The position numbers and the translations under genes were made by a program. From NCBI GenBank assembly GCA_907163375.1, contig CAJQUW010003080.1, positions 310,001 to 374,000 on the forward strand: 64,000 nucleotides of DNA. Reading direction: 5' to 3'. Origin of the DNA: Prostheceraeus crozeri (lineage: Eukaryota > Platyhelminthes > Polycladida > Euryleptidae). The notes under the pieces are model-generated. The model saw nothing but the letters and a program-made list of their open reading frames with translations, was not told the origin of the DNA and did no database searches. Below, one piece after another: positions 14,010 to 64,000 of this stretch (position 1 is its first letter; every line of letters begins with the position of its first letter).

Positions 14010-14540
14010 TATTGATTAAATCCCCAATGTATACATGTTCACAGTTTCGATTTTATTAAATGAACTCGAGTTGACAATTGATGCCAAATGTGAGCTTTGA
14101 AGAAATTTTACCATGGAATTGACTGATCATGACAGCAATACAGAAGCAATAATAGTATTTTACAGATCCTCAGTGTCATGACAGCTGTGGAGAGGCAATG
14201 TTTGTTAAATTAGCAATTCAATAGGTTGCTATTACCTTCATGCTCAAACTCCGGAGTTTTTCCATAAGCGTGATCATATTACAACCAACCTGCCATTGGC
14301 AGAGCAAATGATCCAATTAACTATGGGTCCACGCTGCTAATCAGATTCAAGAAATTAAACATTAATCATGCCGATGAACATTGAGTTAGAAACTTGAAAT
14401 TTCAGCCAAGATAGCACAATAAGATCTCGACTTTTTCATGAAGACTTGCATTAAAATGCGGTTCATGAAACTTCGTTGATAATCAACTGAATTTTCGCTT
14501 AATTAAGATGTTTGTTAGAAAATATGCAAGTTAAAACAAT
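14010..14540 (+). repeat. Family A repeat, copy 2 (truncated)
   Basis: It shares TTAAATCCCCAATGTATAC, TTATTAAATGAACT, ATGTTTGTTAAATTAGCAAT and TTTTCGCTTAATTAAGATG with the other family A copies. It ends just before the tRNA-hammerhead retroposon at 14561. Confidence 0.65.
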
Positions 14541-14560
14541 GCCTTCCTAGCTAATTGACG

Positions 14561-14705
14561 CTCTCAACAGATGGTCCGGTGGACTTGTGGTTAGAGGGCA
14601 TGCTTGCACGTCCTCTAGCTCCAACATCGCTGGTTCAAACCTACCCACGACTGATGAGGCCCAACAGGCCGAAACATGTCTCGTGGTGGTTGCATCTGCT
14701 GAGAT
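14561..14705 (+). mobile_element. tRNA-hammerhead SINE-like retroposon, copy A
   Basis: This is a 145 bp unit with four parts. (1) A 5' end CTCTCAACAGATG. (2) A tRNA-like segment with A-box-like GTGGTTAGAGGG and B-box GGTTCAAACC, the internal Pol III promoter. (3) A hammerhead motif at 14645-14686. (4) A 3' end GCATCTGCTGAGAT, which is the inverse of part 1. Two more copies lie at 62191-62334 and 62485-62629, and all three share upstream GCTAATT-GACG/CACG. Similar arrangements (a SINE with a hammerhead) are known from schistosome SINEs. I cannot say whether this family is described. Confidence 0.75.
14645..14686 (+). ncRNA. Minimal type I hammerhead ribozyme, intact core
   Basis: All invariant parts are in place. 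Stem I pairs CCACGA (14645-14650) with TCGTGG (14681-14686), 6 perfect pairs. The core box CTGATGA is at 14651-14657. Stem II is GGCC/GGCC (14658-14661 with 14667-14670) with loop CAACA. GAAA is at 14671-14674. A tiny stem III C-AT-G sits inside the self-complementary ACATGT, and the cleavage triplet GTC ends at 14680. Such short-stem-III hammerheads are known in Penelope-like elements and retrozymes, where they tend to act as dimers. Activity is inferred, not shown. Confidence 0.8.
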
Positions 14706-15853
14706 TTGATAAATTTATCAATTATCAGGTTACTTGTCTTAATCTCATTTTGTGTTCAAAAGTGACTTTTATTCAACTATTTTGGTCAAAATTAGGAGGT
14801 GCACACGCACTATATACTGTACATGTATGCTGTACCGCAATTTCATGTGATTCCGAGCAACATTTTAGAAGTCAAGGAGGAGGAGGACTAATTGTCCCCA
14901 GGGATCCCGATGAGATTTGACAGATGGATGGAGAGACTTTGGATAGAGTTAGAGACACATCCTCTGAGAATTCTGTGAACTTCTTTTTCTTGTGCTTGCC
15001 ATATTTTAGATAAGCACATGATTCAAGGGTTATAAAAAAATTGCATTGCAATTATCCGTTTGGCGCCATCGAATAATTGCAATTAATTAATTTAAATTTG
15101 TCAGTCCATAATTGCGACTCATTGTTTGGGAAGGTATTTCATTGATTGCTATACCTGCAATGTCGTCACCTCTCACTTGGACAAGCAGTGCGAATTAACC
15201 ATATATAAGTATGTCTTATTCACAAACTGATAGCTTTCAGGATTCTTATCAGGAACTATATGGTACATAACCAATTTAGCAACTCTATGCATATATTACA
15301 ATGCTTTTATGACAGCTCTGAAACTCTTCTTTTTCTGTCATCTGGGCAGATGTAATTGTTCATTCATTAGCTTCAAAACTGATTATTATTATATGACATT
15401 GATGCATGAGCTAAAATGTCTGTATAATTTGTCAATATCTACATGTTAAATGTTTGCAACTGCACCCATCTTATGCAATGGCTCCACTCAAATCACTATT
15501 CAAATAGATAATATGCCATATGTATATAATAATATGCAATGTGCACAGGTCTCTGTATCCTAATTCGCTAAGTGAAATATCAAAGTAAAATATTCAAAAT
15601 TGATAATTAGTCTATTCAAAAGGTGATGACAAATAATTGCAATTGATTTTATTTTTGTTAACCCCTGATATGATTTAAAACTATTGGTTAGAATGATTTA
15701 CTTCATCAACAACAGTTGCTGGCTTGCAGTTCCTCAAGTCTGAAGGAATCATAGCCAATTTTGGCATCTAAAAGGAATTCATGGCATTCTACAAGCGATA
15801 AAAAGTAAATAAATGTTCCTTGTTTGATCCTGCCAATTGAAACAGTCGCATAA
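14706..15853. other. AT-rich sequence, nothing recognised
   Basis: I see no gene, splice-bounded exon or clear repeat end in this stretch. Confidence 0.4.
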
Positions 15854-17639: not shown

Positions 17640-18341
17640 ATGACTTGTGTCGAGTGTCCTCTGAGATTGAAAATTTCAAGAAATGGTGTGACGAAAATAA
17701 AATGATTGTAAATGATATGAAAAGAAAAGTTTTGAACATTAATTTTTCTGCTCTCCCTGTTCAACCAGTCTCTGATGTCGATAACGTTTTTTTTGTTCAA
17801 AGATTCCTGGTGTTATTTTTAGTAACAGATTGACTTGGTCATCTGTAATTGTGTTCAACTCCATTATTCGCTCTATAATGGAGTACGCTTTGCCGGTCTT
17901 TTTGAACGCTGGACCCACATTAGATTCGAAACTGTTAGTTATGTGCAAGAGAGCTTTCCAAATCTGTTATGGCTACGACGTGCGATTTTGTAATAAATGT
18001 AATCTCCTGGATATGCTTTCCAGAAGAAAACTTTTGTCTCTGCGTCTTTTTCGCATTGCATTACAAATTAGCGACCATGTTCTACATCATCTTATTCCAA
18101 AAGTGTCTGATCGAAGTCACCGTCTGATTTTGCCACATTGAAACTAAATGGGTTCGTGGTTTCATCAGCTGTGTTGTACAATCAGTTGCTTTAACTACAT
18201 TACATGCCTTTTTCATCAGGTACCTTTGATATTGCAACACTTGTATCATAAATGTATTCAAGCCTCCTCGATTCTCATTAAAGGAGGCTGTGACTTGCTC
18301 CTGTTATGAAATAGAGGCTTATTTGATTTGATTTGATTTAA
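17640..18341 (+). pseudogene. LINE 3' fragment with internal deletion and TTTGA tail
   Basis: The translated pieces are EIENFKKWCDENKMIVN, then an internal deletion of the thumb region around 17830, then IIRSIMEYALPVFLNAGP, YGYDVRFCNKCNLLDMLSRR and HVLHHLIPKVSDRSHR. It ends with a 3' UTR hairpin GGAGGC..GCTCC and a tail of TTTGA repeats. This is typical of LINEs that prime on short 3' tandem repeats. It is the same family as 30750-31200. Confidence 0.7.
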
Positions 18342-30749: not shown

Positions 30750-31200
30750 TGGGTCATAGGGAGTCGTTGTGTAGTTCGGAAGTAACGAAAACAAATCCTT
30801 TCGTTCGGCGCTAAGTCTTGACAGGTGGAAGTAAAATAGGACTAATTCTATTAGAGATATTGGGAAGAAGTTCATGAAGAATATGGCATGGATTTTACAA
30901 TGCATTTCTGAAGAGCCGAAGTGCTAGAACTTTTCTGCGCTCAACAACGTTCAATAAATTGCACTTTTCACATGCATTTATATCAAATCCGTGGATGATG
31001 CGAAATGTACATCTACAAATTGCATCAACTTTCAGATTTAAAACAATTCCGGGGTTCAAAAACAGAGGAGATGCATACTCGAATACTGATTTGATAATTG
31101 CATTAAACACTTGAACAAGCTGATCATGAGATAGCCTAGTCCTCAAAACTCGCAAAATATACAGCCGCTTCGAAGCAACGGATAATACATGTTCTATACT
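30750..31200 (-). pseudogene. LINE 3' fragment, same family as 17640-18341
   Basis: The minus strand reads RVLRTRLSHDQLVQVFNAII, then KSVFEYASPLFLNPGI, HGFDINACEKCNLLNVVERR and KVLALRLFRNAL. After a frameshift it gives ILHELLPNISNRISPILLP. VFEYASPLF and CNLLxxxxRRKxLxLRLFRxAL match the LINE fragment on the opposite strand at 17640. It is 5'-truncated and frameshifted. Confidence 0.7.
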
Positions 31201-31630
31201 AATCTTACCTATAACCGAAAGCGACTGGCTGTGACACCTAAGAATTTGATTTTTGTATTCAGCGTTTCAAGATCTACAAATCCATGCTATTAAGCCCTTT
31301 GTGCTCGAATTTAGTAAAAAATTGCTAGCAGCTCCCATCCTAATAGAAGGTGAGTCTATTTCATTTTTATGTCAGCTGATTATCAATAAAACTCTGCTAT
31401 CAACTGAAACACTTTTCAGCTCACTGATTTTCTGATTGATGTTCGGAGAAGAGACTGTAGTGAAATCTCGCCATCCGGACGATAAAAAGAGGGAACGGAA
31501 TTCCTCAATAATCCGAAACGAAAATCAAAGTTGGTCACCAAATGTCAGGTTTTATGCGCATTTCTATTCAATAATCTAACAGGGTTCAAGATAGACTGTT
31601 AGTAAATGTACATTAAGTAAGTCTGTTTAG

Positions 31631-55154: not shown

Positions 55155-56239
55155 GCGCCTGAATCAAGTTTTGGATTAAAAAATATACCATGAGCGAAAC
55201 CAATGTTTTCACGATCTATGACCTCTTGGGACAAAATAATCGCAAAAATAAAAATATTTCAATGTACAGATTTTTTACAAATGAGCTTTTTCAAAATGGC
55301 CGCCCTTTTTGCTATGAAATCGTCAAGTTGTACATTAGAATGACTTTTCTGCCTTGTTAACTCACTCCAGCTGCTCAAATATCTCAAAAATTATTATCCA
55401 GAAAATGGCATAGCGTTTAGCTCGTAACGGAATATCTATTTTTCATTCATAAGTAGTATATTATCGACATGATGCTATTTTCATAAAAAGGAAAATATTT
55501 TTTTATTTTTTAATGAAACAAAAAGTCATTCAGTTATTAGCGTTCCATAAAGGCATTAGATCACATGTTGTCATTGAATTGATGGATTTAAAAGGAAAAC
55601 CATGTCTTCAGCTTAAATGTCAACTTAAATTTGACTGCAGGAACATTTATGAAAATAATTATATTAGTATTTATCTCAACTGTAACTTAACTTCATACAT
55701 GACTGTGACGGCGGTTTTTTGATATTCACCCTTGAAACAGTCGTTAATCAACTAATAAGGATATCTTGTTTGAATCATCAAATATTTCTGTGCATTATCA
55801 GTGTGTTACACGTCATTCACAATCAAAAATATCTGGCATGGAAGACACAGGTTTGCAATGTTTTTCCTATATCATGGTCAGTATTTGACTAGCGCCATCA
55901 TGTGATAGTTCGCTTACTATGACTCATACTTGCATTCAGGCATGATTTGAATTTGAACTATGTGGCAGTGATATCTAACGAATTTGAAATTAATCTCACA
56001 TTAATGGTTGGAATTCCAAGCTTCCGGTGGTGATGATCTTGTCTGTGCCGAGAAAAATCATAATGAAAATCGCAAGAAAGTGTGCATGGTATGCCACCGT
56101 AAAGGAAAGCGGGGTATTTCTGAAAGTGACATGAAAAGCATCCAGGAGTTTGTTATTGACGGTTATACGACGGAAGATGCTAATTTTCCAGAGGCATTGT
56201 GCAATGGCTGCCATATGTTGCTTTCTAAGAAACGACGTG
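55155..56239 (+). repeat. Left arm of a 1.08 kb inverted repeat flanking a Penelope-like element
   Basis: It matches 58398-59479 on the opposite strand with only scattered differences (about 99 percent by eye). It starts at GCGCCTGAATCAAG and ends at AAGAAACGACGTG. It includes an open frame of about 69 codons (55513-55722) that is identical in both arms, and the first part of the Cys-rich module. Penelope elements are known to carry long terminal repeats in direct or inverted order, so the arms may be its terminal repeats. Confidence 0.85.
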
Positions 56240-56435
56240 GATATGATGTGACTTTTCCGTTGATTCTGACTACAACCCTAATCGACCGATAATACTTCGA
56301 TCAACCACAATTTGCACCTGTCGTATTTGTTCGGTTGCTCGCGCCGATTTGCAGGAAGCCAATAAGATGAAGAAAAAAGCTGGTCGTCCTCAGCAACATT
56401 TCAGTGCCACATCCGAAACTCCACCTAGTTTTAAG
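56008..56435 (+). pseudogene. Cys-rich module upstream of the Penelope-like RT (frameshifted)
   Basis: The frame reads ENRKKVCMVCHRKGKRGISE, then EFVIDGYTTEDANFPEALCN and GCHMLLSKKRR. A one-base shift follows near 56265, and then DYNPNRPIILRSTTICTCRI, CSVARADLQEANKMKKKAGR and PPSFK, ending in AAG/GTATGT. There are three Cys pairs (CMVC, CNGC, CRIC), likely zinc ligands, and a basic KKKAGRP AT-hook-like segment. There is no in-frame ATG. A TAA lies just upstream, so the start is either a splice acceptor or lost. I do not recognise a named family. It could be a Penelope-associated ORF or a captured host exon. Confidence 0.55.
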
Positions 56436-56464: not shown

Positions 56465-58123
56465 CCCATAAAACTCGTGCCGCTTGACAAAGGTAATGGT
56501 ATCGCAGTGTTAAATACCGATGACTATTACACCAAGCTCAATGCTATCATTGACTCGGACAAATTTGCCAAAGTGACATTTCTAGATGATGAGATGTTGC
56601 TACATCATCTCATTGTTAAGTAGCAGAATAAGTTGAAGTGTTACTTGAACAAACATGTCAAACCGCATGTGGACTGTAAAACGTTCGATTTTATCAATCC
56701 AATAGGCTCCAATTGTGGCAAACTTTACGGCACTGCTAAAGTACATAAACAGGGTACTCCTCTGCGACCTATTGTCGCCAGTCACGGTACCTCTGAGTAT
56801 AACTTAGCGAAATATCTTAATCAGTTCATCACACCTATTATTGATACTGAGTTTTCAGTCCAAAGTAATAGTCAGTTGATTGATGCTATCTCGAAATATC
56901 AATTCTCGCCTGACTCCAAGTTAGTTAGCTTTGATATTGAGAGCTTGTTCACGAATGTCCCTCTGGATGAAACGATTAACATCACTTGTGAGAAGGTCTA
57001 CAATGGTGATGGTCTTAAACCGCCGTTTAGTCAAGATGTGTTTAGGAATCTTCTCAAATTTGCTACTGGTGGCATTTTCAGCTTCAATGATACTTTGTAT
57101 GTTCAGCGTGATGGTCTGGCGATGGGCAGTCCGTTAGCCCCAACCTTAAGTAACCTCTTCGTGGGTTCACGTGAGAGAAAATACTTGAAGCAGAGTTGTC
57201 GGAACGTAAAGTTTTATGCTAGGTACGTGGACGACATTCTTGTGATGTTTGAGGATGATGATCATTCGACTTTCTTGGATTATATCAACTCGTGGCATGA
57301 TAATCTCAAATTCACTGTAAAAATAGGTATGAAGTCCATTCCATTTTTGGATATAAACTTAGACATCGAAAGCAATGTTGCGAACACCACTGTCTACCGT
57401 AAACCCACGTACACGAATCTGGTGTTGAATTACGCTGCCTGCTGCCCCTTACAATGGAAACGAGGCCTGTTACTAACCTTGATCAACCGAGCTTATGTAG
57501 TTTGTAATTCCTGGCTTAATTTCCACAATGAAATTGATAAACTGAGTCACATTTTCAAAGCCAATGGCTACCCGTCTTCATTTATCTTAGATACCACCAA
57601 AAAATTCCTAGATAAAAAATTTTCTAACCCTTCTGTCAAGTCTGATCAATCATACAGCCATGTTGTTAAAATTCCTTTTTTTGGACAGCAGTCTCTGTTC
57701 TTTAAGAAGAGGCTTCAGAGCATTTTTAATCGGATTGATCCTGACAGCAAAGTTAGGTGTGTGTTCACTTGCACAAAGTTGAAAAGCTACTTTTCGAACA
57801 AGGACAGAACTCCTTTAATGTTGAAATCAGGTGTTGTATATTGTTTCACATGTGAGGTTGACCCTCGCTTTACCTACATTGGTAAAACTCTCAGACACCT
57901 AAACATTAGAGTTAAGGAGCATAAGTCCAAAATCTCGGCGATCTTTAATCACCGACTGAATTGTAGTTGCAGATGTAACCCTGAAAATTTCAAAATCCTG
58001 GCATCAGATAGTGATGGATTTGCCCTGAATATCAAAGAAGCTTTTTACATTAAAAAATTGAGTCCTAAACTCAACAAACAAGTAAAATTCGATGGGTTGT
58101 TCTATAATTGTCGTCTTTTTTAA
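56465..58123 (+). pseudogene. Penelope-like element: reverse transcriptase with GIY-YIG endonuclease
   Basis: The frame begins PIKLVPLDKGNGIAVLNTDD, the N-terminal RT motif of Penelope-like elements, but everything before it is missing. TAG at 56621-56623 breaks it. From there a 500-codon frame runs to TAA at 58121-58123. It has YGTAKVHKQGTPLRPIVAS, VSFDIESLFTNVP, GLAMGSPLAPTLSNLFV and the catalytic YARYVDDILV. Then come IPFLDINL and YRKPTYTN (typical of Penelope). The C-terminal GIY-YIG nuclease follows, VVYCFTC..TYIGKTLRHLNIRVKEH, and then a Cys cluster CSCRC. RT and nuclease motifs are intact. The lost N-terminus and the stop make the copy non-functional as it stands. It copies RNA into target DNA nicked by the nuclease. 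Confidence 0.92.
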
Positions 58124-58397
58124 AATTGAAGTTCAGTTGTGTTTGGGTGCTAATGTGATTAGCGTTAGGCCATTAGCAAGTTAATGTGTCTAAACTGTCT
58201 TCCTGCTGGTATTTCTGCACTTTTAGGCTGCTACTAGTAGTTTATGGTTTCACTAGCTGTATTGTTCCATTCATGTTCAGTCCATTGTACATTGAATTTA
58301 TTGATTTGTATCTATATTATGTAGCCTTTGTTTTTCAAAATTATATCCAGGATGTTCCCACTCGAGAGATTCTTGCCGATCAAAGCGCCAAAGAATT
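58124..58397 (+). other. 3' region of the Penelope-like element
   Basis: This lies between the RT stop and the right inverted arm. It has no RNA motif such as a hammerhead that I could find. Confidence 0.5.
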
Positions 58398-59479
58398 CAC
58401 GTCGTTTCTTAGAAAGCAACATATGGCAGCCATTGCACAATGCCTCTGGAAAATTAGCATCTTCCGTCGTATAACCGTCAATAACAAACTCCTGGATGCT
58501 TTTCATGTCACTTTCAGAAATACCCCGCTTTCCTTTACGGTGGCATACCGTGCACACTTTCTTGCGATTTTCATTATGATTTTTCTCGGCACAGACAAGA
58601 TCATCACCACCGGAAGCTTGGAATTCCAACCATTAATGTGAGATTAATTTCAAATTCGTTAGATATCACTGCCACATAGTTCAAATTCAAATCATGCCTG
58701 AATGCAAGTATGAGTCATAGTAAGCGAACTATCACATGATGGCGCTAGTCAAATACTGACCATGATATAGGAAAAACATTGCAAACCTGTGTCTTCCATG
58801 CCAGATATTTTTGATTGTGAATGACGTGTAACACACTGATAATGCACAGAAATATTTGATGATTCAAACAAGATATCCTTATTAGTTGATTAACGACTGT
58901 TTCAAGGGTGAATATCAAAAAACCGCCGTCACAGTCATGTATGAAGTTAAGTTACAGTTGAGATAAATACTAATATAATTATTTTCATAAATGTTCCTGC
59001 AGTCAAATTTAAGTTGACATTTAAGCTGAAGACATGGTTTTCCTTTTAAATCCATCAATTCAATGACAACATGTGATCTAATGCCTTTATGGAACGCTAA
59101 TAACTGAATGACTTTTTGTTTCATTAAAAAATAAAAAAATATTTTCCTTTTTATGAAAATAGCATCATGTCGATAATATACTACTTATGAATGAAAAATA
59201 GATATTCCGTTACGAGCTAAACGCTATGCCATTTTCTGGATAATAATGAGATATTTGAGCAGCTGGAGTGAGTTAACAAGGCAGAAAAGTCATTCTAATG
59301 TACAACTTGACGATTTCATAGCAAAAAGGGCGGCCATTTTGAAAAAGCTCATTTGTAAAAAATCTGTACATTGAAATATTTTTATTTTTGCGATTATTTT
59401 GTCTCAAGAGGTCATAGATCGTGAAAACATTGGTTTCGCTCATGGTATATTTTTTTAATCCAAAACTTGATTCAGGCGC
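58398..59479 (-). repeat. Right arm of the 1.08 kb inverted repeat
   Basis: This is the reverse complement of 55155-56239. On the minus strand it carries the Cys-rich module again (58629 to 58398, VCTVCHRKGKRG.. to LLSKKRR, one Met to Thr change) and the same 69-codon frame (59124-58915). It stops at the point after KKRR, so the second half of the module (CTCRIC part) exists only in the left copy. Confidence 0.85.
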
Positions 59480-59795: not shown

Positions 59796-61144
59796 CAGGG
59801 TGCGGCAAAAATAGCGCCCAATTGAAAAAAGCGTATTTGAATTATAATATTCTATTTGAAATTTTCGAAATGCCCTCCCTCATGGTCAATGCATTGCAGC
59901 AGGCGATGAGGCACAGAGCGGCACACGCGTTTGCAAAGTTTAGTGTCCAATTATTCAATTTTCTTTGAGATAGTAGTAGTAGTCAGTTCAGTGATGGTGC
60001 ATGGCTTTTCTCGATAAACGAGGTCTTTTAGAAGCCCCCAAAGAAAAAAAGTCTTGTGGGGTTAAATCAGAGGAGCATGCCGGCCACTCAATCGGACCGC
60101 GGCGTCCGATCCATCTTCATGGTAATTTCGCATCCAGCCAGTCACGAACATCTCAAGCGTAATAGGGTGGAGCGCCATCTTGCTGGAAGTAGCAGTTCTG
60201 ATCTTGAACCTTCGACCAAAAAAACTAATCTAACATTTCCAAGTAATTCCGACCAGTTACAGTTCCTTCAAAGAAGAAAGGTCCAATTATCCCAGAAGAC
60301 GATATTGTTGCCCACACTGTCACACCAGGTAAATTGACTTCCTTCTCCGCGGACACTCTTGGGTTCTCCGTAGCCCAGTAGACGCAATTGTGTCTGTTGA
60401 TGTTTCCATTGAGGAGAAATTTTGCTTCATCTGACCACCAGATGTTGTCCAGCATTGAATCTTCTTCACACCAAGTTTTGCCAGAAAATCTTCGCAAAAT
60501 TGCAGGCGGCGATCATCATCTCCATCATGAAGGGCTTGCAGTAGACGCGGAATGTAAGGTTTCCATTTCTTTTCATGGAGGATACGAAGAATGCTTCGCT
60601 GGGTGACATTCAACTCCGCAGATAAACGGCGAGATGACTTTGGCTGACTTCGCTGCAATTTCATGATGGCTTCTTCGCTTACAGCTTCATTTGTAGCCGT
60701 GTTCGGACGCCCGGACTTGCTTCCGTTGGCTACCGATCCCGCTGCTTCGAATTTTTCGACCATTCGTTTGATATTTCTTCCTTGTGGTGGGTTAATATCG
60801 AATTCCTGAGCCAAACATCGCGCTGCCATTGACTGATTTCCATCACATTGGTAGTAATGTTTGATGGCCGCAATGCGTTGACTCAATGATAGATAATTCA
60901 TCACTAAGAGACTTGTCAATCGTCAGTTCAGAGCAGCAGTTCAAATAAGCAGAGAATAAGTTGCAATCAAGTTAATACTCGAAGTATCTGCGTTTTATTA
61001 GCACCGAAGCATAGTCATAGGATAGTCAGAAATCAAATCAAAGTAGCACGTGATGATGCATAGATATCTTATAGTGTCTGTGTAAGAGTGAAAGAGAGAA
61101 GGCAATCGATACAGAGAAGTGGGCGCTATTTTTGCCTCACCCTG
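59796..61144 (-). mobile_element. Tc1/mariner-superfamily element, 1,349 bp, both ends present
   Basis: Terminal inverted repeats of 25 bp are seen. The left end starts CAGGGTGCGGCAAAAATAGC and the right end is its inverse with one change. TA follows the right end. The left flank is AA, so a TA duplication is only half visible. A single broken transposase gene lies on the minus strand. Its length and TIRs are typical of the superfamily. Confidence 0.85.
59980..60901 (-). pseudogene. D,D41D-type mariner-superfamily transposase, broken
   Basis: The start is MNYLSLSQRIAAIKHYYQC at 60901. There are two helix-turn-helix parts, with SGRPNTATNE between them and RRLSAELNVTQRSILRIL after. A frameshift falls near 60450. 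Then come [13 protein letters not shown] (first catalytic D), [20 protein letters not shown], a second frame change near 60225, CYFQQDGAPPYYA (second D), and WPACSSDLTPQDFFSLG (third D). There are 41 residues between the second and third D, counting two in-frame stops as residues, as in rosa-type DD41D elements. Two frameshifts and at least two stops make it inactive. It moves DNA by cut and paste when intact. Confidence 0.8.
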
Positions 61145-62190
61145 TATATACATCCATTTTAATATTTCTTTAGTTGGTTTTCATTGATTATTATCAACGC
61201 TTATTCGGTGTGTTGATTAGCATGACGGTTAAATGCCTTTAGCAACCAGCAAACCACCATCAGCAGCTTAGTCAGTAAATATTTATCTAAAGCTGAAAAG
61301 CAGAAATATTATCTCAGAAAATATTTGATTTGCTCAGATTAGATTTAAGCTTCAGTTAATGTGATTCACACAAATTCGGATAAGTCTATAATCTTTACAA
61401 GATGTAATCAGTATTTTCCATACAGAAGCTGCCATTGTAATTCTTCACTGTACTACAAAAATAAAATACAGGGTTTTGTTTACAACTCCTTATCATTGTG
61501 CATTGGATGAAACAGCTATTAAAGTTTCCATCTACGCTCTTATTGAGAAATTCTTTCGGAATTTCAAAATTTCAAAGCATCATTTAGTATCGAAGAGAAA
61601 AACGCATAGAAATGTGCTGGTTATATTGTTCATTTTCAAATTGATATTGCAGTCCACAAAATTCTTGCCAAATGCCAAAATTAAAGTACAAATTTCATTT
61701 TCACCACTACCAAGCACTTGTAATGAATATGAAGGCCTACTACTATGAACACGTGCCAAGTCATATTTTCATCTATCATCAGTACGACTTTGTAAAATAT
61801 GTCAACTTTTCTACTATTTTTAAAATAATTTAAAATCTATAAAGAATTGCATTTGCAGTTGTATACATTTTCTGTTAATGTATATGAATATCTTGATACT
61901 TGGAATATCATAATGCAGCTTTTCATTCGAAGCTGTCAACAGATAATTGCTGCCCCTGACTATTAACTGTTCACTACCGATTATCAGACTTGTGGTGTAA
62001 TTGAAATCAATGACATTTCAGCCATGTAATTCAGAAGTAATTGCAATTGCTCTACAGTCAGTGCTATATGTGTACCAACTACCGATGCTAACGAAACTTA
62101 TTGTCCAAGTAAAAATTAATAACTGGGAGTTATAATATAGGTGTTATAATCTATTTTCACAAGTAACCTGGTAATTGATAGATATATCAA
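61145..62190. other. Unassigned AT-rich sequence
   Basis: The open frame at 61476-61748 has no motif. I see no gene. Confidence 0.35.
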
Positions 62191-62334
62191 TTCTCAACAG
62201 ATGTAGCCACCATGAGACATGTTTCGGCCTGTTGTTCCTCATCAATTGTGGGTAGGTTCGAACCACCGACGTTATAGCTAGAGGTTCGTCAAGCATGCCC
62301 TCCAACCACAAGGCCACCGAAGCATCTGTTGAGA
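62191..62334 (-). mobile_element. tRNA-hammerhead SINE-like retroposon, copy B
   Basis: On the minus strand it reads CTCTCAACAGATG, a tRNA-like part with B-box GGTTCGAACC, a degenerate hammerhead (62209-62253), then ACATCTGTTGAGAA. In the hammerhead the core CTGATGA has become TTGATGA, and stem II is GGAA/GGCC. CGAAACATGTC is kept. Stem I is mismatched. The ribozyme is probably inactive. Confidence 0.7.
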
Positions 62335-62346
62335 GCGTGAATTAGC

Positions 62347-62384
62347 CAGGCGCTACTCATTTCAACCTGTAATGAGTCGCGCCT
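62347..62384. repeat. 14 bp-stem hairpin between copies B and C
   Basis: AGGCGCTACTCATT and AATGAGTCGCGCCT pair with one mismatch region around TCAACCTGT. It lies midway between two divergently oriented retroposons. Confidence 0.75.
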
Positions 62385-62484
62385 GCGTGAAGCGCCTCAA
62401 TGTCCGATGCGACATTAAGTGATTGCAGAATGTAATCCTCCCTCGTGCTTGCGCTAAAGCAGTGTCTTCCTCGCTAATTTCACG

Positions 62485-62629
62485 CTCTCAACAAATGGTT
62501 AGGTGGCGTTGGGGTTAGAGGGTATGCCTGCATGTCCTCTAGCTCCAACGTCGCTGGTTCGAACCCATCACCAACTGATGAGGCACAACAGGCCGAAGCG
62601 TGTCTCGTGGTTGTTGCATCTGTTGAGAT
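62485..62629 (+). mobile_element. tRNA-hammerhead SINE-like retroposon, copy C
   Basis: It has the same order: CTCTCAACAAATGG, A-box-like GGGGTTAGAGGG, a perfect B-box GGTTCGAACCC, a hammerhead (62570-62610), then GCATCTGTTGAGATT. The hammerhead has CTGATGA intact. Stem II is weakened (GGCA/GGCC). GAAA has become GAAG, and stem I (CACCAA with TCGTGG) has two mismatches. Cleavage triplet GTC is kept. It is probably weak or inactive. Confidence 0.7.
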
Positions 62630-64000
62630 TTCATTTAGAAACAATCTATGTTGCAGATGGGAAAATATAAATCAGAAAACATCTATTACATAATCCCCCT
62701 CGGAAAAGATAGACAAATAAATTATTCTAGAAGCAGAGACATATCAAATTCAAACTTTGAATCAATTCAAATCTTAGCACATGTGTAAATGCAAAAATAA
62801 TAAAGTTTCCTAGAATTCACAATTCTCAAGTATATTATCTTCAGCTTGAATCTTGGCAGATAGAATAAGGAGAAGGTGATAACTTAATATCAATGCTAAA
62901 AGCGCTGTCTGCTTTCCCGAGAGAAAAACGTACTTAACCTTTAGTAAGTGAAGGAAATGGTGGGAAAATGTGCAGTGTAGCACTTGCAATTACGTGATGA
63001 AAAATGGAGTAAGTTGTGGCTGTAATCAATTGCATTTCATGAGTCTGGATTACTTTGGATCAAAAGTTGAAATACATCTATTTCAAGGCATCAGCCTATC
63101 AAATATGCACTTGGTTTTCCACCGCTAAGATGGCTGCTAGTTAATCGTCGTTCAGATTTGTTGAAAAGAAATGGGTAAAACACAAATTGTGCAACTTTGA
63201 ATAGGGAGTTATGTCGATTTTGAGACCTGTAAACTGGACCTGCTGATGATTCCTGATATTGGATGAAATAGCAGCTATTCAGGTCTGTTTCCTCTTTTCA
63301 ACTGAGGATGCAACTCAATATTAACTTATTCTATTTAAATTATGTGTGGAAAATACAGCATTGATTAATTATTACAGAAGCATTTGCCAGTAGTGTGTTT
63401 AAAGTGATGTTTAATGAATGCCCGTCGAAATTGCAAATCACAAAATGTGATTTTGAATTTTCTTTTAAGACCATTCATTTCTTTCAGATGAAAATTATAT
63501 TGAAGACATTAACAGCAATGCATTAATTGCAAGATTGTCACAATTTGAAGACGTTTGCATATATCTTGCGTTTATATTCTCCAATTTGATTAATGCCTTT
63601 CACTTTTTGTAGAACATTTCTGATTTTGTTGAGTAGCTCGGCGGAAGTTTGTAAAAAATGGGATCAAAAACTAATTATCTCTTTACAGTCAAGTGGAAAT
63701 TTACTCATGATGAAATATTTTTTTTTCGGTTTGATGGAATGACATCTTAATGTATAATTGCATTCCTAACGCTTCTTTAACTCTGCAGTAAACAGAACGA
63801 AATGACATTATTGTTTGTTCTAAATATTTTATATCAAATTGTCTCAAACCGAAATGAGCGATTTGTCTTTCCCTAACATGTAATTGTCTTTATAATCAAA
63901 TATTCTCGAAGAGACAGAGAATTGACCTCATTATCTGTCGAAATGAAATTCAAATCATAAGTGGCAGACAAGAAAGTCTGAATAACAGAAAGTTGCGTGA
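62630..64000. other. AT-rich sequence to the window end
   Basis: I see no gene, NCKX exon or element end. Confidence 0.4.

What the first reader, a model, noticed from the sequence alone, without database searches (positions are those of the whole stretch)
14561..14705. A tRNA promoter fused to an intact minimal hammerhead ribozyme in a 145 bp retroposon
Seen: B-box GGTTCAAACC, then only 4 nt later a hammerhead with every invariant base (CTGATGA, GAAA, GTC), 6 bp of stem I and 4 bp of stem II. The whole unit is closed by inverted ends CTCAACAGATG / CATCTGCTGAG. Known: hammerheads occur in schistosome SINEs, Penelope-like elements and retrozymes. Inference: a Pol III transcript that could cut itself near its 3' part. 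Cleavage inside a unit with pairing ends could leave defined or circular RNAs used for copying. The order A-box, B-box, hammerhead, inverted end is compact and may be a distinct family.
Basis: partly seen in the sequence, partly recalled or inferred. Interest (0 to 1): 0.85.

Follow-up and report, generated by a model that had tools for sequence, protein, structure and literature searches.

The report
Ribozyme mini-retrotransposon with Penelope-type ends
A short repeated DNA unit that encodes a self-cutting RNA is scattered through this animal genome, and the way its copies are inserted looks like the work of Penelope-type jumping genes, which would help answer how such elements spread.

Summary
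The hammerhead at 14638-14691 is real: every core base is present, and the exact 30-base core occurs 2017 times in the 2.05-Gb genome (control 0). The 145-bp "retroposon" is not the unit. It is part of a 303-bp unit found in tandem arrays or 5'-truncated copies, and the "inverted ends" are an internal stem. The window copy spans 14530-14742. A/B-box-like motifs are present (13 of 3000 shuffles have such a pair), but no program calls a tRNA.

It is best filed as an animal non-LTR retrozyme. The new evidence is how copies end. Of 114 outer 3' ends in 79 insertions, 104 fall at two sites about 30 nt apart. Of 39 head-to-head pairs with both ends seen, 28 carry one of each (shuffle mean 15.5; 0 of 20,000 reach 28). 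Nine of 59 have 9-14 bp target duplications. Autonomous Penelope-like elements in this genome show the same layout and tail. Penelope-type reverse transcription, from two internal sites and on both cut strands, probably mobilised it. The papers I saw propose this but do not show it.

Cleavage, circles and Pol III transcription are inferred. The HHR's inner stems show no compensatory change, but copies are too alike to test this.

The parts
14530..14742 (+). the window's copy of the retrozyme: a single 5'-truncated arm, u273 through u303/u1 to u182 (u1 = 14561); it ends at site B; no inverted partner and no target duplication found
   Evidence: BLASTN against the natural 303-bp unit of L021, 94% identity; TSD scan gave only a 5-nt match
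14563..14573 (+).
   Evidence: complementary to 14693-14703 with one mismatch; paired in the fold of 14561-14705; element continues beyond it on both sides
14580..14590 (+). A-box-like motif TGGACTTGTGG (TGGCCTTGTGG in the L021 unit, u20-30)
   Evidence: A..B pair with 25-75 nt spacing in the L021 unit, found in 13 of 3000 dinucleotide shuffles; promoter function inferred. The window copy has A at the fourth place, so it departs from the A-box pattern used there
14633..14641 (+). B-box-like motif GTTCAAACC (fits GWTCRANNC)
   Evidence: direct reading
14638..14691 (+). minimal type I hammerhead: outer stem I 14638-14641/14688-14691, inner stem I 14645-14650/14681-14686, CTGATGA 14651-14657, stem II 14658-14661/14667-14670, GAAA 14671-14674, palindromic stem III ACATGT 14674-14679, predicted cut 14680/14681
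   Evidence: Rfam HH9 32.9 bits; fold; 2017 exact cores in the genome
14693..14703 (+). 3' strand of the internal stem
   Evidence: as for 14563-14573
14708..14718 (+). site A (u148-158): one of the two places where copies of the family end at their 3' side; proposed first reverse-transcription start. Read through in this copy
   Evidence: end histogram, deduplicated counts
14739..14748 (+). site B (u179-188): the second end site, about 30 nt further ('tail'); this copy ends here
   Evidence: BLAST end at u182
62154..62634 (.). second, older copy: head-to-head pair, minus arm 62154-62350 ending at site B (u182), plus arm 62354-62634 ending at u150, site A
   Evidence: 84-86% identity to the unit; sequence read
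56624..58123 (+). fragment of an autonomous Penelope-like element (reverse transcriptase; C-terminal part with GIY-YIG-like motif, the latter by eye), same genome, not shown to be the partner
   Evidence: Pfam RVT_1 7.7e-12 (no GIY-YIG family hit); 87 genomic matches

Best explanation
It is a non-autonomous animal retrozyme with a 303-bp unit. A Pol III-type internal promoter (tRNA-like A and B boxes) would make multimeric RNA from arrays. The hammerhead, working through a palindromic stem III between neighbouring units or molecules, would cut it into 303-nt pieces that host ligase closes to circles. The RNA is then taken in trans by the reverse transcriptase/endonuclease of a Penelope-like element (PLE). 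That enzyme cuts both strands of AT-rich target DNA and starts cDNA at two internal sites, A (about u150) and B (about u181). The two cDNAs run 3' to 5' along the RNA, sometimes several times round, stop at random and are joined head to head, giving an insert with one A end, one B end and a short target duplication. Shown here: unit, copy number, intact ribozyme bases, two end sites, head-to-head A+B pairing, multi-unit arms, target duplications, and the same signature in PLEs of the genome. Inferred: transcription, cleavage, circularity, use of a PLE enzyme.
For: Unit: copies 303 bp apart head to tail; 30 of 34 same-strand neighbouring cores within 1.5 kb in the first 100 places are exactly 303 apart. 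Ends: 104 of 114 outer 3' ends of 79 insertions lie in A (u150-165) or B (u178-196), 11.6% expected if ends were uniform. Of 39 head-to-head pairs with both ends in view, 28 are A+B, 6 A+other, 3 B+other, 2 B+B, 0 A+A; label shuffles give mean 15.5, maximum 27 of 20,000. In the sample not selected for B ends 16 of 22 are A+B. Target duplications: 9 of 59 insertions have an exact repeat of 9 nt or more that is not low-complexity, shuffled flanks mean 0.95, maximum 4. Multi-unit templates: 32 of 100 arms exceed 303 nt. Orientation: 16 of 18 opposite-strand neighbouring cores are head to head. PLEs here: 9 of 9 opposite-strand neighbours among 87 matches are head to head. Family 2 copies end at two places 27 nt apart (7 and 8 of 15), family 1 at two places about 29 nt apart (8 and 4 of 12). 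Literature: a purified PLE protein starts reverse transcription at two internal RNA sites, cuts both strands and prefers AT-rich DNA, and the 30-40 bp 'tail' is the stretch between the starts (PMC11167929, parts 1 and 2 of 4 read). Typical PLE inserts have an inverted 5' pLTR, a 31-bp tail on one arm and 8-10 bp duplications, mostly head to head (PMC3846280, passages). Ribozyme: 154 of 174 monomers keep all 12 core/cleavage positions; the dimer hammerhead with 6-bp stem III is computed at -40.0 kcal/mol against -40.8 for the best dimer fold.
Against: No sequence similarity was found between the unit and the ends of the two sampled PLE families, so the partner is unidentified. In PLE family 2 the end sites lie upstream of its hammerhead, in the retrozyme downstream. 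No excess of cDNA ends at the predicted cut. No compensatory changes in the 12 inner stem pairs, 1 in the outer stem. Hammerhead variability is not significantly below the rest of the unit in arrays sampled by a query outside it (P 0.24). The Rfam score is below the curated threshold and no tRNA is called. 10 of 114 ends and 11 of 39 pairs do not fit A+B. Flanking TA repeats blur the ends by several bases. Within-array homogeneity does not separate circle from multimer templates: the most uniform arrays carry no private variants.
Confidence: 0.78

Rival explanations
1. A tRNA-derived SINE moved by a LINE, in which the hammerhead is a passenger; inverted arms come from twin priming.
Against: Twin priming fixes one 3' end; here both outer ends are fixed 3' sites, of two kinds, paired A with B. 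No poly(A) or common LINE tail in the listed flanks. Units are tandem.
Confidence: 0.08
2. A satellite DNA or DNA transposon (MITE- or Helitron-like) spread by recombination or transposase; ends and inverted layout come from palindromes.
For: Long homogeneous arrays, inverted neighbours, a palindrome TTGATAAATTTATCAA at site A.
Against: Two end types offset by 30 nt, 5' ends spread over the whole unit, 9-14 bp target duplications, dispersal over many contigs. A transposase would give one fixed pair of ends.
Confidence: 0.06
3. A PLE-mobilised RNA as in the best explanation, but copied from uncut multimeric transcripts; the hammerhead is inactive or irrelevant to mobility.
For: No cDNA run-off at the cut. 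In the anole PLE, ribozyme mutants did not change insertion in vitro (PMC11167929). Rfam score below threshold, no compensatory changes.
Against: Core kept in 154 of 174 monomers, 2017 exact copies; comparable animal repeats do self-cleave and form circles (PMC7229834).
Confidence: 0.3

Closest known systems
Metazoan non-LTR retrozymes (coral, mussel, axolotl; PMC7229834)
   Same: type I hammerhead in tandem repeats of about 150-450 bp, thousands of copies, TSDs larger than the 4 bp of plant retrozymes, no LTR, PBS or PPT reported there
   Different: here the 3' ends, head-to-head pairs and tail are resolved and match PLEs; expression and cleavage untested; unit 303 bp against 350-390 bp in mussel
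Schistosome Sm-alpha/Sj-alpha SINE-like elements
   Same: hammerhead plus a tRNA part in a repeated element of similar size (335 bp for one Sm-alpha-like element, PMC8490949 passages; tRNA-Gln, PMC4918200 passages)
   Different: no similarity tested here; their end structure was not compared
Penelope-like elements (Poseidon of anole, PMC11167929; Penelope of Adineta vaga, PMC3846280)
   Same: minimal hammerhead with very short stem III, tandem copies, inverted head-to-head arms, about 30-nt tail, short target duplications, AT-rich targets
   Different: no ORF, 303 bp instead of 2.8 kb (the tandem spacing in C7567), no sequence similarity found to two PLE families of this genome
Rfam RF02275 Hammerhead_HH9
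   Same: whole model aligned end to end, all core columns
   Different: stem III loop missing; 32.9 bits, threshold 52; a variant with a stem III hairpin, L042, scores 45.8

Membership tests
hammerhead ribozyme, type I | invariant core CUGANGA...GAAA...NUH with stems I and II | tested here: met
hammerhead ribozyme, type I | score above the curated Rfam threshold | tested here: not met
   32.9 against 52 bits; no stem III loop
hammerhead ribozyme, type I | self-cleavage | not testable with these tools
   needs RNA
hammerhead ribozyme, type I | compensatory changes in stems | tested here: inconclusive
   0 in 12 inner pairs, 1 in the outer stem, 174 monomers of about 2% variability
metazoan retrozyme | tandem repeats of about 150-450 bp carrying the hammerhead | tested here: met
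   303 bp
metazoan retrozyme | retrotransposition marks (dispersed, 5'-truncated, target duplications) | tested here: met
   duplications in 9 of 59, many others lie in TA repeats where none can be seen
metazoan retrozyme | linear and circular unit-length RNA | not testable with these tools
   no RNA data
PLE-mobilised element | two 3' end sites about 30 nt apart (tail) | tested here: met
PLE-mobilised element | head-to-head arms, one with and one without tail | tested here: met
   28 of 39 pairs; 16 of 18 neighbours
PLE-mobilised element | sequence shared with an autonomous PLE of the genome | tested here: not met
   two families, 27 fetched 3' flanks plus one tandem junction and the window fragment, no hit; other PLE families not sampled. 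Lowers the claim of a named partner, not of the mechanism
PLE (autonomous) | RT/GIY-YIG ORF | tested here: not met
   a 303-bp unit holds no such ORF
tRNA-derived SINE | A and B boxes at Pol III spacing | tested here: met
   13 of 3000 shuffles have such a pair; loose A-box pattern, three overlapping matches in the unit
tRNA-derived SINE | recognisable tRNA fold | tested here: not met
tRNA-derived SINE | single 3' end with A-rich or LINE tail | tested here: not met
   two end sites

The most novel reading that the evidence does not exclude
These are the 'SINEs' of Penelope-like elements: a Pol III-type promoter and a self-cutting hammerhead make RNA circles that PLE reverse transcriptase captures in trans by RNA shape rather than by shared sequence. 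It starts at two internal sites on both cut target strands and rolls round the circle to lay down head-to-head arrays in one event. Animal retrozymes in general would then be PLE parasites.
Probability: 0.5. Interest if true: 0.78.

Novelty: new variant of a known kind. Interest (0 to 1): 0.62.

Why it matters
Which machinery moves animal retrozymes is open: the papers seen propose PLEs because both carry type I hammerheads and occur in tandem (PMC7229834 Discussion; PMC7761336 and PMC11722881, passages). A PLE-type end signature on a retrozyme, with the same signature on PLEs of the same genome, makes that proposal directly testable at two predicted bases. It also gives a simple origin for head-to-head satellite arrays.

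Tried and rejected
Rejected: a 145-bp element with inverted termini. Looked for and not found: cDNA run-off at the ribozyme cut (5 of 99 termini in u117-125, 2.9 expected); compensatory changes in the inner stems; lower variability of the hammerhead in arrays sampled without bias to it (0.86% against 1.14%, P 0.24); a PLE sharing sequence with the unit; circle against multimer from array homogeneity (C3130 0.11-0.17% within arms and 0.14% between its arms, 1.99% mean between loci, but C2433 plus arm 4.62%, C1095 minus arm 1.37%, and no private variants). Absence of TTTT in the unit means nothing (1705 of 3000 shuffles lack it). Rfam HH9 in the whole genome found 4 matches, none over cut-off, because scores of the common form are too low for 2 Gb. 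COX1 reads without stops under the invertebrate mitochondrial code, among others; the species was not identified. First duplicate filter (72 insertions) over-collapsed copies in TA repeats; one search replaced it (8 of 87 dropped, 79 kept); the duplication and arm counts are. Loci were not drawn at random: one search selects copies like the window's, young arrays, copies with a B end, another the best HH9 scores. A script failed and was mended; one search covered only 6 regions because of a bad query end and was replaced.

Full report
OBSERVATION. The window is C2550:310001-374000 of an unnamed 2.05-Gb assembly of 14,165 contigs. The COX1 found there reads without stops under the invertebrate mitochondrial code (table 5; tables 4, 9 and 14 also give none, table 2 gives 12), so it is an animal by that reading; the species was not identified. 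The hammerhead described at 14640-14690 is present base for base. Rfam's best match is Hammerhead_HH9, 32.9 bits, E 1.7e-6 in 501 bases, under the gathering score of 52, and a gathering-threshold scan of the window reports nothing. The missing score lies in stem III: ACATGT has no room for a loop. Rare variants in the genome carry a stem III hairpin and score higher: L042 (ACATGTAATGT) gets 45.8 bits, and a gapped pattern found 17 places with longer stem III stretches, most of which can form a hairpin by eye.

THE UNIT. Aligning the first 41 fetched copies and four HH9 matches with flanks showed that similarity continues on both sides of the 145 bp and that neighbouring same-strand copies lie 303 bp apart. 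I number the unit u1-u303 with u1 at window 14561; the predicted cut is u120/121. The window copy covers u273 through u303/u1 to u182, 14530-14742, 94% identical. A second, older copy at 62154-62634 is a head-to-head pair. The exact 30-base core with a free loop has 2017 matches, the exact 33-mer across the end sites 1176, controls 0. The paired 'inverted ends' lie inside the unit.

PROMOTER PART. The unit has an A-box-like and a B-box-like motif at Pol III spacing; 13 of 3000 dinucleotide shuffles have such a pair. The A-box pattern was loose and matched three overlapping places. The window copy itself departs from it by one base. ARAGORN finds no tRNA in the window, and no tRNA family appears in the Rfam search of four loci. 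Transcription by Pol III is therefore an inference.

ENDS. I merged 105 loci into 84 stretches holding 87 insertions, and dropped 8 that share flanks with another. Of 114 outer 3' ends, 53 lie at site A (u150-165), 51 at site B (u178-196), 10 elsewhere; 35 of 303 positions make up A and B. Where both outer ends of a head-to-head insertion are in view (39 cases), 28 have one A and one B, 6 A with another, 3 B with another, 2 B+B and none A+A; shuffling the labels gives a mean of 15.5 and never 28 in 20,000 trials. The sample had biases: one search's query included the B end. In the loci from the other searches 16 of 22 pairs are A+B and 6 A+other;'s, 12 of 17 A+B, 3 B+other, 2 B+B. BLAST ends in TA repeats overrun by a few bases; insertions with clean duplications place the ends near u148-153 and u180-182. 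Exact duplications of 9-14 bp outside low complexity occur in 9 of 59 insertions, with a mean of 0.95 and a maximum of 4 for shuffled flanks. 5' ends are spread over the unit, and 32 of 100 arms are longer than one unit; some arrays have many units in each arm, for example C186 and C274. Among the first 100 places, 16 of 18 opposite-strand neighbours within 1.5 kb are head to head.

PENELOPE COMPARISON. The window holds a PLE reverse transcriptase fragment at 56624-58123. The genome search listed 87 matches to it in at least two families. Their opposite-strand neighbours within 4 kb are head to head in 9 of 9 cases, and one family stands in tandem at 2772 bp. Fifteen 3' flanks of that family end at two places, L106 coordinates 283-295 (7) and 310-316 (8); twelve of the window's family end at 243-259 (8) and 269-278 (4) of L122 (two of the four rest on weak alignment ends). 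The tandem junction L106 carries a minimal hammerhead with palindromic stem III ACGCGT. PMC11167929 (parts 1 and 2 of 4 read) reports that a purified PLE protein cuts both target strands, prefers AT-rich DNA and starts reverse transcription at two internal RNA sites whose interval is the genomic 30-40 bp tail. PMC3846280 (passages) describes the inverted 5' pLTR, a 31-bp tail on one arm, 8-10 bp duplications and mostly head-to-head layout. The retrozyme copies show these features. They share no detectable sequence with the two PLE families sampled, and in the 2772-bp family the end sites precede the hammerhead while in the retrozyme they follow it. The partner may be another family, or recognition may rest on RNA shape.

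RIBOZYME IN THE LIFE CYCLE. 154 of 174 monomers keep all 12 core and cleavage positions. Stems show 0 compensatory changes in the 12 inner pairs and 1 in the outer four; with about 2% variability per site this is no test. In arrays sampled by a query outside the hammerhead, its variability is not significantly lower than the rest (0.86% against 1.14%, P 0.24). A two-molecule hammerhead sharing a 6-bp stem III is computed at -40.0 kcal/mol, near the best dimer fold of -40.8. Had linear cut RNA been a common template, arms would stop at u121; 5 of 99 stop in u117-125 against 2.9 expected. So the templates were mostly circles or uncut multimers, and the data do not separate these. For the anole PLE, ribozyme mutants did not change insertion in vitro (PMC11167929).

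KNOWN OR NEW. Animal hammerhead repeats with circular RNA are known (PMC7229834: outline, passages, Results part 1 of 3, Discussion). A tRNA part in schistosome hammerhead repeats is known (PMC4918200, passages; also PMC2770079 and PMC8490949, passages, for SINE-like Sm-alpha). PLE mobilisation of animal retrozymes is proposed in PMC7229834, PMC7761336 and PMC11722881 (the last two seen as passages). I found no paper reporting the tail or A+B pairing on a retrozyme in my searches, which cover open-licence PubMed Central papers only and were read as listings apart from the papers named. The two main papers on PLE hammerheads were not held. I rate it a new variant of a known kind: the element is ordinary for its class, the integration evidence is not.

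Noticed in passing
window 55155-56242 and 58395-59479: Near-perfect inverted arms of about 1.08 kb (853 nt 100%, 218 nt 98%) flank the PLE fragment; the arms are not similar to the PLE junction L106 and could be a host palindrome or an assembly fold-back.
   Followed up: partly
window 60323-60922, minus strand: Broken mariner-like ORF (Pfam DUF4817 1.2e-11; HTH_Tnp_Tc3_2 0.0017, below cut-off).
   Followed up: no
G000 C234, C716, C815, C1214 and 13 other places; L042:1501-1571: Rare hammerheads with an enlarged stem III, such as ACATGTCACATGTC; a possible route between dimer-type and single-molecule hammerheads.
   Followed up: partly
G000:C46 47576-59868: The same three-core pattern (-,+,+) repeats three times at about 5.83-kb spacing, as if a retrozyme pair rides in a larger tandem repeat.
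   Followed up: no
G000:C7567 44104-59458: Intact-looking tandem PLE copies (817-aa open frame, three of them spaced 2772 bp) on the contig that also holds retrozyme copy L002 at 23829.
   Followed up: partly
flanks of many copies, e.g. L003, L010, L016, L020: Many insertions sit in (TA)n repeats, in line with an AT-rich cutting preference; not counted against background.
   Followed up: no
window 17785-18141 and 30895-31266: Two short ORFs that look by eye like C-terminal pieces of non-LTR reverse transcriptase; the first had no Pfam hit, the second was not tested.
   Followed up: partly
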